DNA from: a virus
IMG/VR virus record: IMGVR_UViG_3300042387_000156
Coordinates: 1-40,913 of that record
Length of the DNA stretch: 40,913 nt
Strand: one strand, 5' to 3'
The stretch's first letter is position 1. Each line of letters begins with the position of its first letter. Below, piece by piece: positions 1 through 9,093 of the stretch. The translations under genes and the position numbers were made by a program. The notes beneath the pieces are model-generated. The model made no database searches, was not told the DNA's origin, and was given only the letters and a program-made list of their open reading frames with translations.

Positions 1-156
1 CACTATTCTCGTACATCATCCCACTCACTCTCTACTGGTAGCCATGAATTACCTTGCCCTACGAATTGCGGTATCTCGTTGATGTAAGCAGGTGGCAACT
101 TGCGTGGGTCTAATCCCATAGCACGCTGTATATCCACACGCTCAAAACGATCTGTG
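1..156. repeat. Terminal direct repeat, left copy (circular joint)
   Basis: The first 156 bases recur at 40758-40913 in the same orientation. The copies differ at one base: C at 30, T at 40787. The difference falls in the third position of a Glu codon of the whiB-like gene (GAG versus GAA on the minus strand), so it is silent. This is the signature of a contig that closes on itself, or of a terminally redundant phage genome. The single silent difference suggests population variation rather than random error, but an error cannot be excluded. Confidence 0.93.
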
Positions 157-392
157 TTAGCCCATATCCCGTCTAAATCTTTATAGGATAAAGCATACTC
201 ATAACACTCATCGTATGCAGGACAACTCATACACACAGTCCTAGCACGCAAGGCACTAGGTGTGCGTGAGAATTTCTCCCTAAGTTTCCAGCGTGGATAC
301 ACGCCGATAACTTCACTCATCTCGGGAAACCAATCATCAGGACTTGGATCGTATGCGCAACTTGCTTCGTTCACGAAGTTAGGCATAGTCAT
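3..392 (-). CDS. whiB-like: WhiB-family Fe-S transcription regulator
   Basis: This encodes about 129 residues with the WhiB layout. An isolated Cys12 is followed by a C-x2-C-x5-C cluster (Cys54, Cys57, Cys63) that would hold a [4Fe-4S] cluster with it. The family's G-[IV]-W turn is seen as GIWAN at about 75-79, followed by a basic stretch. WhiB proteins are confined to Actinobacteria and their phages, where they bind the primary sigma factor region 4 and alter promoter choice. I chose the ATG at 392 because it overlaps the upstream stop as ATGA and has a GAGAGGTGG ribosome site 6 nt away; the reading frame is open 13 codons further upstream. It lies late in the leftward operon. It probably redirects host RNA polymerase (inference). 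The gene is complete here, and its C-terminal part is repeated at the window end. Confidence 0.9.
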   Translation of the reverse strand: MTMPNFVNEASCAYDPSPDDWFPEMSEVIGVYPRWKLREKFSRTPSALRARTVCMSCPAYDECYEYALSYKDLDGIWANTDRFERVDIQRAMGLDPRKLPPAYINEIPQFVGQGNSWLPVESEWDDVRE

Positions 393-733
393 AACAGACC
401 ACCTCTCATAAAGAACACACGATAAGCACACTCTGTGTTATCGCCTATACATTGTTCGCCACGCTTAGCACCACACATAGCGCATGGATACTCTCGTGGA
501 TCATCTAAGTTAAACATGGTACTCGGCAACGATTTATAGCGCACACGAGTAGCATCACTAGAGGGCAGGTATGTGAGATAAACAGACACAGGCCCGTCTA
601 TCTCCCAACCTTCCTCGAGGTGTATGAACTCACCTGCAAGGAGATCAACTCGTGTGGTTTTATTACCACCTTTCGTGGTTTTCCACACGAGATCATCCCA
701 CTCACACTTGCGCTCACGCATCATCTTAAGCAT
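389..733 (-). CDS. Small zinc-finger-like protein of unknown function
   Basis: This encodes about 114 residues. The C-terminus holds a probable zinc site with Cys84, Cys87, Cys95 and Cys102 (CAMC, then C-x7-C and C-x6-C), like the short C-terminal zinc fingers common in actinophage proteins. The N-terminal part is charged and has no family I recognise. The frame is open to an ATG at 820, but that region overlaps a convincing zinc-ribbon gene in another frame (726-863). I therefore prefer the ATG at 733, which overlaps that gene's TAA by 8 nt and has a GGGG tract 6 nt upstream; ATGs at 724 and 721 are alternatives. Its stop overlaps the WhiB start (ATGA), so translation is probably coupled. 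Confidence 0.7.
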   Translation of the reverse strand: MLKMMRERKCEWDDLVWKTTKGGNKTTRVDLLAGEFIHLEEGWEIDGPVSVYLTYLPSSDATRVRYKSLPSTMFNLDDPREYPCAMCGAKRGEQCIGDNTECAYRVFFMRGGLL

Positions 734-863
734 GAAGTACCCCGATCTTTGCCATGCCACACGAGTAGCAATAGTTTCGTTCAGCGTTATAGTCATGCTC
801 AGGTACCCACATGGGTACATCGCACTTGTGGCATCGAGTGTCGATACACTTAGTCGTTTGCAT
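726..863 (-). CDS. 45-residue zinc-ribbon protein
   Basis: This very short gene has a textbook zinc ribbon: Cys11-x2-Cys14 (CHKC), 17 residues, then Cys32-x2-Cys35 (CYSC). The product starts MQTTKCIDTRC and ends GVLHA. The ATG at 863 has an AGGA ribosome site 7 nt upstream, lies inside the end of the preceding gene (stop 850-852), and the stop overlaps the next start as ATGCTTAA. The spacing matches the other coupled genes in this operon. Function is unknown; free-standing zinc ribbons of this size often bind nucleic acid or protein partners. The alternative is that the overlapping longer frame (to 820) is used here, but that frame has no ribosome site and no motif in this part. Confidence 0.72.
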   Translation of the reverse strand: MQTTKCIDTRCHKCDVPMWVPEHDYNAERNYCYSCGMAKIGVLHA

Positions 864-1020
864 CTGTGTATCCTAACTGTTCAGCCTTCTCACGATATGT
901 GTGTGAGCGTAGCAACCAGCGACTAGCATCTATCATCTTGCGTTGTGATAGCGCAATCTCATAGTGCTTGTAGCAGGTGTCTGCCATTGTTGCGTATGCC
1001 TTTAGCGGTGGTGTACTCAT
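850..1020 (-). CDS. Hypothetical 56-residue protein
   Basis: A 56-residue reading frame starts at the ATG at 1020, one base after the amidotransferase stop (1022-1024). A GGGAG ribosome site lies 7 nt upstream. The product (MSTPPLKAYATMADTC to YTDAND) is mostly helical and charged, with a short segment DASRWLLRSHTYREKAEQLG that looks like an amphipathic helix. It has no zinc site, signal or membrane segment. I do not recognise the family. It fills an otherwise empty gap in a tightly packed operon, which together with the ribosome site supports it being real. Confidence 0.72.
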   Translation of the reverse strand: MSTPPLKAYATMADTCYKHYEIALSQRKMIDASRWLLRSHTYREKAEQLGYTDAND

Positions 1021-1021
1021 G

Positions 1022-1852
1022 TTAGAACTCCCATGCTGTTGAGTATGCTTTGTGTGATTGCTCGTATGTCATTTTCTTGTAGCACATACAGTTTACACTA
1101 ACCATGTCGCACCATTGGCAGGTATCACACACTTGGCACACATAGTTGTGGATGATGAGATCATCCTCGAGTAAGTGTGTTTGGCATCCTACGCATGGCC
1201 ACTCCTCGTTATCGTATGTGTTTTCTGATGCGGTATAGAATGAGCCTAAGTCTTGCTTGCTATACCACTTGTTGTAGAAGCCGTATGAAGGCGAGCAACT
1301 GTCGTTAGACCACCACACACCACTCTCGTCTGTCGTACCCTTGTTATCGTGTAGCAGGTACATCTGATACTCTGCCTTAGGATCAACAGTAAGCACACAC
1401 ACCTTAGAGCCTGATGTGTACTCCTCGAGTATGTTGTAGATGTGTGGATTATCGAGAGCAGATACACCGCCTATCTTGGCGAGAACTTCCTCTGCGAATA
1501 TGCGTGTATCACTACGCCAATCTCCCGTTGGAATATCTATTGGGAGTATGCCGTTGTGTGCAAGCACAGTCATACTGTCTGCTACCTTGAACGGGTGGCA
1601 GTTGTCCAAGTTAGTTGCGCCATGTGTGGCTAGTCGTGCGTGCCATAGTGCATAGTCAGACGGATACTCAGCACGCATCTTGAGGAACTCATTGACCGCA
1701 TCATCAGGATCCATTGTGTGATAGGTGATGATACGCTTCTCCTTGCTCACGACAATAGCAAACCCGAAGCCGTCTGGGTTGTTGATCGCAGAGTAAGTTA
1801 ACTTCTCACGATCAGGTAATACATTGGGTGGTACTACGCATAACATACACAT
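1022..1852 (-). CDS. Class II glutamine amidotransferase with C-terminal Cys cluster
   Basis: This encodes 276 residues. Cys2 follows the initiator Met, as required for the Ntn-type nucleophile of class II glutaminases, which release ammonia from glutamine. Other family signatures are DGFGFAI near 28, LWHARLATHG near 69-78 (the Arg/His substrate loop) and LAHNGIL near 97-103 (the Asn-Gly oxyanion loop). The last 60 residues carry eight or more cysteines in CVGC, CQVCDTCQWC and CMC patterns, which suggests a zinc module not usual for the family. The ribosome site GAGGA precedes ATG 1852. It sits directly downstream of an amidoligase-like gene; this pairing is known from predicted peptide-amide systems in bacteria and phages. 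The likely job is to supply ammonia or remove a glutamyl group; the substrate is unknown. Confidence 0.8.
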   Translation of the reverse strand: MCMLCVVPPNVLPDREKLTYSAINNPDGFGFAIVVSKEKRIITYHTMDPDDAVNEFLKMRAEYPSDYALWHARLATHGATNLDNCHPFKVADSMTVLAHNGILPIDIPTGDWRSDTRIFAEEVLAKIGGVSALDNPHIYNILEEYTSGSKVCVLTVDPKAEYQMYLLHDNKGTTDESGVWWSNDSCSPSYGFYNKWYSKQDLGSFYTASENTYDNEEWPCVGCQTHLLEDDLIIHNYVCQVCDTCQWCDMVSVNCMCYKKMTYEQSHKAYSTAWEF

Positions 1853-1853
1853 G

Positions 1854-3377
1854 TTAGTTTTCCTCGTCTGTGGAATTAGATCCCACGCTTGTAGTTTCTA
1901 GCACCTTCATCGCAACTTGCGTGAAGTTTCCGTACTTGTCCTGATTGTCTAGCACATAAGCCATGAACCTAAACCACGATAGTTGCTTGTCCTTTGGGTT
2001 TATTCTCATATCTCGTGTGTATTCTGTGGCTGCATGTAGGAACTCAATAGCAGATAAAATCCTCTGCTTGCGGAGTGATCCTCTGAACACACGAACCTCT
2101 AGCGTGGCATCGTTGTATGAGTTAACAGCCTCATACCTGTCTGCCTGTTGTCCATGCTTGATCTTGGGTACGAGATAGCCCTTGTCCTTGAATCTTGCGT
2201 AAGAACTTGAGCGACCTGCTACGCCTTCGACCATGCGTGAGTTGTCGTATATGAGTTTCTGAAACCGCAACTCATGACCCTCATCACGCTTGCCATTTTT
2301 CATGAAGGCTGTGCGTGATATGTGAATGTGTAATCCACATGTGCTTGTATCCCATGAACGGAAACCAAGTTGGCGTAAGCGGTTCAGCCAATCCCAGTTA
2401 AGGTTCTCGAGTTGATCGAATGAGTGTGGATGCGATACGATCTCGAAGCCGTCATTGAGTGAGCCGTCATGCTTACAGTACACACGATCTCCGAGTTGAT
2501 CTATCACCACTTGAGCGCCGTTATCTACACCATGCTCGTTAGAATCCTCGACCTCTAACTCGAAGCCGAAGTGATACTGAGCCTTCCCGTAAAACTGTGG
2601 GGCTGGCTTGTATGAGTAATCGTAGATTAGCCCGTTGCGATAGCACTCATGGTCATCGTTTTCTGTACGCTCACCATAGCACTCACCACACTCCCAACTC
2701 TCGTCATAGCATGTACCACACAGGCTACGATCACGAGCATCGGAGTAATGAAGTTCGCTGAACATCTCGTTGCAATACTCACACATCGAGAAATCATCTG
2801 ACTCATTAAGCACATCCGAACATGTTGCACATGTAGGAGAGCCGTTAAAGTATGCGTGTTGATTACCATAGTGCGGAGTTTCACACTCACCACATGTATA
2901 TGAACATGTGCGGTGTACTGTACGCATCTCGTTATCGTACATAACCTGAACAGTATTGGTCATGTACTCAAACGGAACATGATAATCACCTGTTTGAAGT
3001 ATCATACGATGACATAGGCATACATGGCGTGTATCCTCGTGCTTGGCTATGTACTTGGCAGGGAACAGCGTGTCTATCGCAGTAGAAACGCTATCTGTGA
3101 TGTTTAATACCTTCGAGTATGCGCTCTCGATGTCTGTATCAAAGCGCAAAGCCTTGCGTGTGCAAGGATCGCATAGGTATGTCCTCTGGCGTGTGGTTGT
3201 CTGTGTGTCGTACAGAGCAGAGCCTTTGCCACAGTTATCGCAGACGCCATAACCTGCCGTTGTAATGCGTACGGCTAGGAGTGCGTCTAGATCATCTTGG
3301 TTCAGTTGCATGAACCAATCGTGTGTGGCTACACTTGCGTAATAATCTGCGAATGTAGCCTGTAAGCCTGTGCTCAC
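1854..3377 (-). CDS. Amidoligase-like (glutamine-synthetase-fold COOH-NH2 ligase) protein with zinc-rich N-terminus
   Basis: This encodes about 507 residues if the GTG at 3377 is used. That GTG overlaps the upstream stop as GTGA; the ATG at 3410 is an alternative. The first ~240 residues hold many Cys pairs (CDNC, CDPC, CGEC, CATC, CEYC, CGTC, CGEC), enough for several zinc knuckles. The C-terminal half matches the Amidoligase_2 type: FGFELEVE near 270-277, KHDGSL then GFEIVSHP near 302-317, CGLHIHIS near 347-354, and TLEVRVFRGS near 425-434. These acidic, His and Arg positions are the ATP/metal and substrate residues expected in the family. Such enzymes join a carboxylate to an amine at ATP cost. 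The zinc-rich N-terminus may bind a target. The adjacent amidotransferase suggests one pathway; the product is unknown. Confidence 0.75.
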   Translation of the reverse strand: MSTGLQATFADYYASVATHDWFMQLNQDDLDALLAVRITTAGYGVCDNCGKGSALYDTQTTTRQRTYLCDPCTRKALRFDTDIESAYSKVLNITDSVSTAIDTLFPAKYIAKHEDTRHVCLCHRMILQTGDYHVPFEYMTNTVQVMYDNEMRTVHRTCSYTCGECETPHYGNQHAYFNGSPTCATCSDVLNESDDFSMCEYCNEMFSELHYSDARDRSLCGTCYDESWECGECYGERTENDDHECYRNGLIYDYSYKPAPQFYGKAQYHFGFELEVEDSNEHGVDNGAQVVIDQLGDRVYCKHDGSLNDGFEIVSHPHSFDQLENLNWDWLNRLRQLGFRSWDTSTCGLHIHISRTAFMKNGKRDEGHELRFQKLIYDNSRMVEGVAGRSSSYARFKDKGYLVPKIKHGQQADRYEAVNSYNDATLEVRVFRGSLRKQRILSAIEFLHAATEYTRDMRINPKDKQLSWFRFMAYVLDNQDKYGNFTQVAMKVLETTSVGSNSTDEEN

Positions 3378-3520
3378 TTGCGTAGATCCCGATTCGCTTT
3401 GGCGAGCCATTGGACTTGGCGTGTGAGGCGTGCGTTCTGCACCGCTGTCGTGATGAACAGCGATGTACTTACTGTTAGGGCAATCATCGTAGCGATGAGT
3501 GTGCCTGTGTCTAGGTACAT
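3374..3520 (-). CDS. Small single-span membrane protein, first gene of leftward operon
   Basis: This 48-residue frame begins MYLDTGTLIATMIALTVSTS, with a hydrophobic span at about 8-27 and a basic tail (RLTRQVQWLAKANRDLRK). The ATG at 3520 has a strong AGAGGA ribosome site 7 nt upstream. The TGA overlaps a GTG start of the amidoligase gene (GTGA). It lies in a different frame from the long open frame that extends the amidoligase upstream to 3575; that extension has no ribosome site or motif. It probably sits in the inner membrane with the tail in the cytoplasm. Function is unknown; it could anchor the following enzymes or mark early membrane takeover. Confidence 0.72.
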   Translation of the reverse strand: MYLDTGTLIATMIALTVSTSLFITTAVQNARLTRQVQWLAKANRDLRK

Positions 3521-3616: not shown

Positions 3617-3644
3617 ATCATAGCAGATCGGTTTTTGAGGTCAA
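3617..3644 (-). promoter_or_regulatory. Sigma70-like promoter for leftward operon
   Basis: On the minus strand TTGACC (3639-3644) and TATGAT (3617-3622) are separated by 16 bases, close to the -35/-10 consensus of primary sigma factors. The expected RNA start is near 3610, upstream of the small membrane gene at 3520. GGTCAAA (3639-3645) and TTTGACC (3599-3605) form an inverted repeat around the -10 box, a possible operator. This promoter could drive the whole leftward operon. Confidence 0.7.
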
Positions 3645-4021: not shown

Positions 4022-4453
4022 ATGAACAAGATCGAAATAACCGAAATCGTGGACATGTTTGAATTGACCACAGAAGCATCTAAGTCATGCGTAAATCGTC
4101 TAGAGTCTGCGCTGACTAAAACTGGCTCAACATCATCACGCTTGAGCATGGCATCATCATCACTAAGCGCCTTGCGTGATAAGTACGATGATGAAACCAC
4201 CGATTACATCTCACTTAACGCCTTATCCTCGATCCTTAAGTTTGCAAGCGTGTTAGGCGTGGATAACAAGAAGCCAGCGCAAGCAGAGGACAAGCCAGCC
4301 AAGAAAAGAAAAACAGGTTGGGAGAATCTGAAGCCAGCAGACGCAACACCAGCGAAGCCAAAGAAATCCGCAAGCGTGGAAATCTCGGGCTTATCGAATG
4401 AGGACATCATCGCTCAACTATTGGAAGCCTTGAGCGTAGCGCAACGCAGATAG
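4022..4453 (+). CDS. Hypothetical protein with basic linker
   Basis: This encodes 143 residues. The N-terminal ~80 residues look helical and Ser-rich (EIVDMFELTTEASKSCVNRL and a later SSLSALRDKYDDE). A Lys/Ala/Pro-rich linker (about 83-117) leads to a short C-terminal helix ending ALSVAQRR. I do not recognise a family. The ribosome site is weak (GAG 9 nt upstream). It stands alone between the control region and a strong terminator, so it has its own transcript. Its place before terL is where a small terminase often lies, but no DNA-binding motif is visible and I make no such call. An overlapping 36-codon frame from 3952 is weaker. Confidence 0.7.
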   Translation: MNKIEITEIVDMFELTTEASKSCVNRLESALTKTGSTSSRLSMASSSLSALRDKYDDETTDYISLNALSSILKFASVLGVDNKKPAQAEDKPAKKRKTGWENLKPADATPAKPKKSASVEISGLSNEDIIAQLLEALSVAQRR

Positions 4454-4470
4454 TCCACCGACACAAACTT

Positions 4471-4510
4471 AACCCCGTATGCGTGCGAGCGTGTGCGGGG
4501 TTATTTTTAT
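4471..4510 (+). terminator. Intrinsic terminator after the 143-residue gene
   Basis: AACCCCG (4471-4477) and CGGGGTT (4496-4502) form a 7-bp stem with an 18-base loop, followed by ATTTTTAT. It lies 17 bases after the stop at 4453. It separates this short transcript from the terL operon. Confidence 0.8.
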
Positions 4511-4523
4511 GCGCTCACGCACG

Positions 4524-4620
4524 CTGGGGCTCTGCCCCAGACCCCGCTGGGGGACACCCCCAGACCCCCGGGCGGATAGAATCGGGGTCAAAAAGCGACC
4601 CCGATGCTTGTAATCCGCCC
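4524..4620. repeat. GC-rich cluster of three perfect hairpins
   Basis: Three perfect inverted repeats lie side by side: CTGGGGC-tct-GCCCCAG (4524-4540), CTGGGGG-aca-CCCCCAG (4547-4563), and a double-stem hairpin with outer arms GGGCGGAT (4570-4577) and ATCCGCCC (4613-4620) and inner 9-bp arms ATCGGGGTC (4581-4589) and GACCCCGAT (4597-4605). The block is strikingly GC-rich against its AT-rich surroundings and contains no credible gene. It resembles REP-type palindromes of high-GC actinobacteria. It could be an origin, a packaging signal or an acquired element; none is proven. Confidence 0.8.
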
Positions 4621-8523: not shown

Positions 8524-9093
8524 ATGACAACACTAGCAGCAATTCAAGGTAATGGTTGGGCTGTTGTTGGTTGCGATTCACGATCAACTGACGATCATGG
8601 TAAGCCAATGACTATGATTACTCCTAAGATAATCCAAAATGGTAGTTATCTTATAGCAGGAGCAGGTGCTTCTCGTGGTTCTAACCTCCTACAATTTGGT
8701 TGGAAGCCACCTAGATTTAAATTAAACGAAGATTTAGATAAGTTTATGACTACAAAGTTCATACCTTCTATGAGAAAACTATTCTTAGATGCTGGTTATG
8801 ACATGAAAGAAGATGGACAGGCTGCATCTCACGATTCAGAGTTCATTGTTGTAGCCAATGGTGTTATATATCCAATCTTTTCTGATTATTCTTGGGATAG
8901 AACCTCTACTAAAGTCTACTATTCAGGTAGCGGAGGACATACAGCACTAGGTGCTATGGAAGTTCTTGGCGCAGATAAGGCCAAAACAGCGGAACAGGCA
9001 GCAGAAATTATAGAAAAGTCTATTAACACTTCAATTAAGTGGGATGTTTATTCAAACGGCCCAGTCATTATTAAAAAACAGTTCGCAAGATAA
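8524..9093 (+). CDS. Proteasome/HslV-like Ntn protease, probable head maturation protease
   Basis: This encodes 189 residues. The start MTTLAAIQGNGWAVVGCDSR is like HslV and proteasome beta subunits: Thr2 becomes the N-terminal nucleophile after Met removal, Asp18 corresponds to the conserved Asp17, and Lys35 lies where the family has its Lys33. The order of strands and the GAGASRG segment near 47 also fit an Ntn fold. It sits between portal and scaffold/capsid genes, where phages encode the prohead protease, and no serine-type prohead protease is found. I infer that it trims scaffold or capsid during maturation. Alternative: a peptidase acting in the host. GGGG lies 3-6 nt before ATG. Confidence 0.75.
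   Translation: MTTLAAIQGNGWAVVGCDSRSTDDHGKPMTMITPKIIQNGSYLIAGAGASRGSNLLQFGWKPPRFKLNEDLDKFMTTKFIPSMRKLFLDAGYDMKEDGQAASHDSEFIVVANGVIYPIFSDYSWDRTSTKVYYSGSGGHTALGAMEVLGADKAKTAEQAAEIIEKSINTSIKWDVYSNGPVIIKKQFAR

What the first reader, a model, noticed from the sequence alone, without database searches (positions are those of the whole stretch)
1854..3520. Zinc-rich amidoligase with small membrane partner heads a leftward operon
The amidoligase half carries FELEVE, HDGSL, GLHIHIS and EVRVFRGS motifs, while the N-terminal half has seven or more CxxC pairs. A 48-residue membrane protein is coupled to it through a GTGA overlap, and a glutamine amidotransferase with its own Cys cluster follows. Families of this type are known to be paired in predicted peptide- or metabolite-amide systems (established); the combination with zinc arrays and a membrane micro-protein in a phage early operon looks uncommon (inference). 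It may modify a host wall peptide, a host protein or a nucleotide.
Basis: partly seen in the sequence, partly recalled or inferred. Interest (0 to 1): 0.75.

Follow-up and report, generated by a model that had tools for sequence, protein, structure and literature searches.

The report
Phage zinc-amidoligase with glutaminase partner
A virus of actinobacteria carries a matched pair of enzymes, one that makes amide bonds and one that takes ammonia from glutamine; the pair is already known from other phages, it turns up as an inseparable unit in many phages and gut mobile elements, and nobody yet knows what it modifies.

Summary
1854-3377(-) is a real Amidoligase_2 protein: PF12224 28.3 bits against a cut-off of 22; AlphaFold pLDDT 90.7; Foldseek's 22 best PDB hits are all glutamine-synthetase/YbdK/PafA/Dop relatives. 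It has seven CxxC pairs, where shuffling gives 1.1. 1022-1852(-) is a class II glutamine amidotransferase with all catalytic residues. The two are inseparable: adjacent on one strand in 91 of 92 non-redundant viral loci and 71 of 72 bacterial loci, median gap 2 nt. Zinc arrays are the rule in the family, not an oddity.

The 48-residue membrane protein is a real, conserved gene under purifying selection, led by a conserved sigma-70-like promoter. It is not a dedicated partner: relatives without the amidoligase keep a homologue in the same place.

The pair is already described (Marvin, OM43 phages, phiEco32/LUZ24-like phages). Most likely mechanism (inferred): the amidotransferase frees ammonia from glutamine and the amidoligase uses ATP to amidate a carboxylate on a host macromolecule; substrate unknown. 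Verdict: new member of a known kind. Two details look unreported: a zinc cluster on the amidotransferase specific to the phage lineage, and the same module on gut mobile elements.

The parts
3617..3644 (-). Candidate promoter TTGACC-16-TATGAT (extended -10) ahead of the leftward operon
   Evidence: 10 of 12 matches; total number of matches in the region not above shuffles. A TTGAC-N-TAnnnT site lies within 250 nt upstream of the small ORF in 38 of 80 non-redundant loci against 0.75 expected from shuffled upstream DNA, mostly at -90 to -104.
3374..3520 (-). First gene: 48-aa single-pass membrane micro-protein (MYLDTGTLIATMIALTVSTSLFITTAVQNARLTRQ...)
   Evidence: Conserved family (A3). Codon test pN/pS 0.43 in frame against 1.08 and 1.66 in shifted frames. 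Found also in relatives that lack the amidoligase.
1854..3377 (-). Amidoligase_2 protein, 507 aa, GTG start coupled by GTGA to the micro-protein
   Evidence: Pfam; PHROG 16683 and 22302 (unknown function); AlphaFold; Foldseek; alignment A5.
2643..3242 (-). N-terminal zinc array (Cys46-Cys245; 7 CxxC)
   Evidence: 5-10 CxxC in nearly all viral relatives, 6-7 in most bacterial ones. Zinc binding itself is inferred.
1893..2570 (-). Glutamine-synthetase-like catalytic domain: E273/E275, D304/G305/S306, E312, H350/H352, E427/R429
   Evidence: E273, E275, D304, S306, E312, H350, H352, E427 and R429 invariant in 65 sequences; G305 invariant in A1 and at least 90% in A4; fold.
1022..1852 (-). Class II glutamine amidotransferase (276 aa), Cys2 nucleophile, 1 nt after the amidoligase
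   Evidence: Pfam; C2, R73, T76, G78, N100, G101, D115 invariant in 37 sequences; AlphaFold pLDDT 84.9; Foldseek GlmS glutaminase, EgtC, PurF.
1079..1195 (-). C-terminal Cys cluster of the amidotransferase (CVGC...CQVCDTCQWC...CMC)
   Evidence: 4 CxxC in 91 of 92 phage homologues, none in 66 of 68 bacterial homologues.
850..1020 (-). 56-aa ORF, conserved fourth gene of the operon
   Evidence: Homologue at the same offset in 55 viral loci.
3..431 (-). WhiB-like transcription factor closing the operon
   Evidence: PF02467 35.2 bits, cut-off 23.6; conserved in 71 viral loci.

Best explanation
The two enzymes form one glutamine-dependent amidation module. Shown: the amidoligase has the glutamine-synthetase-like fold with its metal/ATP signature (E.E, H.H, E.R) intact; the downstream protein has an intact class II glutaminase site; the two genes are practically never apart. 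Inferred: the glutaminase splits glutamine at Cys2 and passes ammonia to the amidoligase; the amidoligase activates a substrate carboxylate with ATP as an acyl-phosphate and converts it to the amide; the invariant zinc array next to the catalytic domain holds a macromolecular substrate or the partner protein. My best guess for the target is a host macromolecule, an envelope peptide or protein (as suggested in print for phiEco32 and Marvin), changed early in infection to the benefit of the phage. The micro-protein and WhiB are neighbours under the same promoter, not subunits.
For: Pfam scores over cut-off. AlphaFold and Foldseek: the amidoligase matches YbdK E 4e-6, glutamine synthetase, GMAS, PafA and Dop; the amidotransferase matches GlmS glutaminase E 1e-6, EgtC and PurF. 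Catalytic residues invariant in 65 and 37 homologues. Adjacent in 91/92 viral and 71/72 bacterial loci, median gap 2 nt. Among phages with a related terminase the amidotransferase was never seen without the amidoligase. Distances between amidoligases track those between amidotransferases (r 0.89) better than those between terminases (r 0.62). The same pair occurs in Marvin, MEP402, a Manatee Spring phage, Acinetobacter phage 313 and a mycobacterial linear plasmid.
Against: No biochemistry exists for this family to my knowledge. A class II amidotransferase fold can also act as a gamma-glutamyl hydrolase (EgtC is among the Foldseek hits), so ammonia transfer is not proven. Some amidoligases lack the partner (Clostridioides phage AR1086-1), so the ligase may work without it. 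TM-scores to known structures are low (0.26-0.35).
Confidence: 0.5

Rival explanations
1. Gamma-glutamyl chemistry instead of ammonia transfer: the amidoligase joins the gamma-carboxyl of glutamate to an amine, like YbdK or EgtA, and the amidotransferase-like protein trims or hydrolyses the gamma-glutamyl product, like EgtC in ergothioneine synthesis.
For: The best structural match of the amidoligase is YbdK, a gamma-glutamylcysteine-ligase relative. EgtC structures are among the best matches of the amidotransferase, and TIGR03442 EgtC scores weakly. Related phage systems include a gamma-glutamyl cyclotransferase (Stenotrophomonas phage; LUZ24-like phages, PMC3890496).
Against: No gamma-glutamyl cyclotransferase in this record (with positive controls). 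GlmS glutaminase scores higher than EgtC by sequence and structure. A strict operon fits an enzyme complex better than a separate trimming step.
Confidence: 0.25
2. The module acts on peptidoglycan precursors: it amidates D-Glu or diaminopimelate carboxyls as MurT/GatD and AsnB-type enzymes do, so that the wall resists other phages or host lytic enzymes, with the micro-protein holding the enzymes at the membrane.
For: Published suggestions for phiEco32 and Marvin (PMC10580990). The micro-protein is coupled to the amidoligase by GTGA in this window and lies just upstream in most actinophage relatives.
Against: The micro-protein also occurs in relatives without the amidoligase (7 of 16, against 6 of 8 with it; Fisher p 0.21) and lies on the other strand in some (L072, L156). 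Zinc arrays are more usual in proteins that bind proteins or nucleic acids. The module occurs also in OM43 and Acinetobacter phages of Gram-negative hosts.
Confidence: 0.2
3. The module protects incoming DNA: it is shared by phages and gut conjugative elements because it modifies a host defence protein or the element's own nucleic acid.
For: 65 of 79 non-redundant bacterial loci have a resolvase, integrase, relaxase or coupling gene within the flank. The zinc arrays fit a nucleic-acid or protein substrate. Many phages of the group carry the cassette near the terminase.
Against: No PADLOC model matches. No base-modification gene was recognised among the window proteins scanned. Mobile context alone does not give a function.
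Confidence: 0.12

Closest known systems
Mycobacteriophage Marvin gp105/gp106 (Marvin cluster, 19 records)
   Same: Adjacent amidoligase and class II amidotransferase with Cys clusters in both; 34.9% identity over residues 230-482 and 32% over 95% of the amidotransferase
   Different: Shorter N-terminus (4 CxxC); no homologue of the micro-protein found upstream
Amidoligase/GATase pair of OM43 phages MEP401 and MEP402 (PMC10580990)
   Same: Adjacent pair, published as PF12224 plus PF13522
   Different: Only two CxxC in the N-terminal half of MEP402; host is a Gram-negative methylotroph
phiEco32/LUZ24-like multi-enzyme amidoligase systems (Iyer et al. 2009, recalled and cited in PMC10580990; LUZ24-like in PMC3890496)
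   Same: Amidoligase_2 and class II amidotransferase in one cluster
   Different: They add an ATP-grasp ligase, a COOH-NH2 ligase and a gamma-glutamyl cyclotransferase; none found here
MurT/GatD peptidoglycan amidation complex
   Same: Works alike if the best explanation is right: a glutaminase feeds ammonia to an ATP-dependent ligase that amidates a carboxylate (PMC6085368; own knowledge)
   Different: Other folds: Mur ligase and class I amidotransferase; not homologous

Membership tests
Amidoligase_2 (PF12224) | Pfam score over the curated cut-off | tested here: met
   28.3 bits, cut-off 22
Amidoligase_2 (PF12224) | Glutamine-synthetase-like fold | tested here: met
   AlphaFold pLDDT 90.7; 22 best Foldseek PDB hits all in the superfamily, best E 4e-6, prob 1.00, TM-score low at 0.26-0.35
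Amidoligase_2 (PF12224) | Metal/ATP signature E.E, H.H, E.R | tested here: met
   E273, E275, H350, H352, E427, R429 invariant in 65 sequences
Amidoligase_2 (PF12224) | ATP-dependent amide formation | not testable with these tools
   Needs biochemistry
Class II glutamine amidotransferase | Pfam score over cut-off and Ntn fold | tested here: met
   GATase_4 32.4 bits, cut-off 23; GATase_6 27.0 bits, cut-off 27; Foldseek GlmS glutaminase E 1.3e-6
Class II glutamine amidotransferase | N-terminal Cys nucleophile, Arg, Asn-Gly oxyanion hole, Asp | tested here: met
   C2, R73, N100, G101, D115 invariant in 37 sequences
phiEco32/LUZ24-type amidoligase system | Accompanying ATP-grasp ligase and gamma-glutamyl cyclotransferase | tested here: not met
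   PF13535 and PF06094 absent, controls positive. PF14395 absent but without a positive control. The record is not known to be complete
   Homologues in 7 of 16 terminase relatives lacking the amidoligase, 6 of 8 having it
Known anti-phage defence system | Match to a PADLOC model | tested here: not met
   No match at E 0.1

The most novel reading that the evidence does not exclude
A two-protein zinc-amidoligase/glutaminase module, carried alike by actinophages and by conjugative elements of gut Clostridia, that amidates a host protein or nucleic acid to help foreign DNA become established: a counter-defence by chemical amidation, of a kind not described so far.
Probability: 0.1. Interest if true: 0.75.

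Novelty: new member of a known kind. Interest (0 to 1): 0.33.

Why it matters
Phage amidoligases have been predicted since 2009 and I found no experiment on any of them. The survey shows that the two-gene form is a single unit, common in phages of one actinophage group and on gut mobile elements, while PHROGs still lists both protein families as unknown. That gives a small, testable pair. It also separates the unit from neighbours (membrane micro-protein, WhiB) that would otherwise be taken for parts of it.

Tried and rejected
Membrane micro-protein as obligatory subunit: it looked compelling at first, since only one of the loci found with the micro-protein alone truly lacked the amidoligase. 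The terminase-anchored control showed the link to be shared phage ancestry and synteny. Natural fusion of the two enzymes (L067, same contig as L115): the fused ORF lacks the first residues of the amidotransferase, including the catalytic Cys, and its zinc half is in another ORF, so it is a deletion or assembly error and not evidence. Solved-structure search by sequence gave nothing for the amidoligase and only weak PurF/GlmS hits for the amidotransferase. Rfam and tRNA searches of the window were empty. The Marvin paper and Iyer 2009 are not held in the library, so what they say is taken from citing papers or memory.

Full report
WHAT IS IN THE SEQUENCE. The leftward strand of window 1-3520 holds a compact operon: a 48-aa membrane micro-ORF (3374-3520), a 507-aa amidoligase (1854-3377, GTG start overlapping the stop of the micro-ORF as GTGA), a 276-aa class II glutamine amidotransferase (1022-1852, 1 nt downstream), small ORFs, and a WhiB-like factor (3-431). 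The seven CxxC pairs in residues 1-269 are far beyond chance (mean 1.14 in shuffles, 0 of 20,000 reach 7). The record is a virus contig of 40,913 bases. Its terminase and capsid are closest to an uncharacterised Caudovirales record and to Streptomyces phages, and it encodes WhiB, so an actinobacterial host is likely (inference).

FAMILY AND FOLD. Pfam places the large protein in Amidoligase_2 (28.3 bits, cut-off 22) and the next in GATase_4 (32.4, cut-off 23). PHROGs matches both strongly only to families of unknown function (phrog_16683, phrog_22302; phrog_25883). An AlphaFold model from 65 homologues (mean pLDDT 90.7, pTM 0.56) retrieves YbdK, glutamine synthetases, gamma-glutamylmethylamide synthetase, PafA and Dop as its 22 best PDB matches, best E 4e-6. 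TM-scores are low, as expected with an extra zinc half, so this is a superfamily assignment and no more. The amidotransferase model (pLDDT 84.9) retrieves GlmS glutaminase, EgtC and PurF. Catalytic residues of both are invariant: E273, E275, D304, S306, E312, H350, H352, E427, R429 in 65 amidoligases, and C2, R73, N100, G101, D115 in 37 amidotransferases. That these correspond to the E.E, H.H and E.R signature of glutamine synthetase and to the Cys/Arg/Asn-Gly/Asp site of class II glutaminases is established knowledge of those families (own knowledge).

THE PAIR IS A UNIT. In non-redundant loci with sequence downstream, the amidotransferase follows on the same strand in 91 of 92 viral and 71 of 72 bacterial cases, median gap 2 nt. 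The viral exception, L067, is a damaged fusion without the catalytic Cys. Distances between amidoligases and between amidotransferases correlate at r 0.89, amidoligase against terminase at 0.62: the pair is inherited together and not simply with the phage. The pair also stands in Marvin, MEP402, a Manatee Spring podovirus, an Acinetobacter phage and beside each other on a linear Mycobacteroides plasmid. A Clostridioides phage has the amidoligase without it.

ZINC ARRAYS. Cys165, 183, 186, 199, 220, 223, 230, 233 and 245 are invariant in 65 sequences from phages and Clostridia. Most members of both groups carry 5 to 10 CxxC pairs, so the array is ancestral and ordinary for this branch. The Cys cluster on the amidotransferase, by contrast, is in 91 of 92 phage proteins and absent from 66 of 68 bacterial ones: a phage-lineage addition, shared with Marvin. 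Zinc binding is inferred from the Cys pattern.

THE MEMBRANE MICRO-PROTEIN. It is a real gene. A family with invariant I-A-L and N is found upstream of most actinophage amidoligases. Its codons evolve under purifying selection (pN/pS 0.43 in frame, 1.08 and 1.66 out of frame). A TTGAC-N-TAnnnT promoter lies in its leader in 38 of 80 loci against 0.75 expected. A scan for the micro-protein alone seemed to tie it to the amidoligase: six loci lacked it, five of them at contig ends. The control removed that conclusion. Among contigs chosen only by their terminase with at least 5 kb of upstream DNA, 6 of 8 with and 7 of 16 without the amidoligase carry the micro-protein (Fisher p 0.21), in the same place, followed by unrelated genes. 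Some of the latter seeded the second profile, but they were found by the first profile too, and L283, L287 and L323 were not seeds. In L072 and L156 it lies on the other strand from the amidoligase. It is a gene of the phage group that happens to lead this operon.

CONTEXT IN BACTERIA. In the Clostridia loci, 65 of 79 have a resolvase, integrase, relaxase or coupling protein within the flank, and DUF960 and DUF3846 are recurrent neighbours. The module is cargo of mobile elements there as well.

WHAT IS KNOWN. The pair was reported in OM43 phages as PF12224 plus PF13522, with the remark that it was proposed to modify the wall and prevent superinfection in phiEco32 and to act in metabolite synthesis or phage-host interaction in Marvin (PMC10580990). 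LUZ24-like phages combine it with ATP-grasp, COOH-NH2 ligase and gamma-glutamyl cyclotransferase (PMC3890496). Clostridium prophages with amidoligases are discussed in the same terms (PMC11318856). The window lacks the extra enzymes as far as the record goes (inconclusive). I found no experiment on function.

MECHANISM. I favour a glutamine-dependent amidation module (confidence 0.5): the glutaminase makes ammonia, the ATP-dependent ligase forms the amide, and the zinc half positions a macromolecular substrate. The steps up to intact active sites and obligate pairing are shown; ammonia transfer, complex formation and the substrate are inferred. Gamma-glutamyl ligation with EgtC-like trimming (0.25) cannot be told apart by sequence. 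The peptidoglycan version (0.2; it overlaps with the best explanation as one choice of substrate) loses some support now that the membrane protein is not a dedicated subunit.

VERDICT. The rarity claim and the membrane-partner reading do not hold. New member of a known kind; interest 0.33.

Noticed in passing
8524-9093 (+): Proteasome/HslV-like protein (phrog_1040 'peptidase HslV family', E 2e-20; PF00227 22.2 bits, just under cut-off) between portal and the next structural gene. The related Streptomyces phage RosePharie has only short hypothetical ORFs at that place. Possibly a head-maturation protease or an independent Ntn hydrolase.
   Followed up: partly
L171-L250 (genome loci): The amidoligase/amidotransferase pair is widespread in gut Clostridia on mobile elements, next to DUF960, DUF3846, resolvase and relaxase genes.
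   Followed up: partly
L008 and L333 (Clostridioides phage and plasmid): An amidoligase without amidotransferase, followed instead by an RlaP-type nucleotidyltransferase (RNA-repair family) and preceded by a DUF1653 gene: a different pairing, perhaps with RNA metabolism.
   Followed up: no
L067:1991-4026 (+): Amidoligase fused to an amidotransferase that lacks its start and catalytic Cys, with the zinc half in a separate ORF: deletion, pseudogene or assembly error.
   Followed up: yes
4510-4575: Dense G+C-rich element between the 4022-4453 ORF and the terminase (GGGGCTCTGCCCCAGACCCC...GGGGGACACCCCCAGACCCCC). The first 20 bases recur exactly in six locus entries upstream of related amidoligase operons, some of them from one contig; nature unknown.
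   Followed up: partly
850-1020 (-): 56-aa helical ORF conserved in 55 related loci right after the amidotransferase, without any known family.
   Followed up: no
L002:5874-6010: In the closest relative a further ORF of about 45 aa (MSAELEIKCWCGVITYSDADRIAHDCNYYPHDIIERDELWEKQL) lies between micro-protein and amidoligase; the window appears to have lost it, which created the GTGA overlap.
   Followed up: partly
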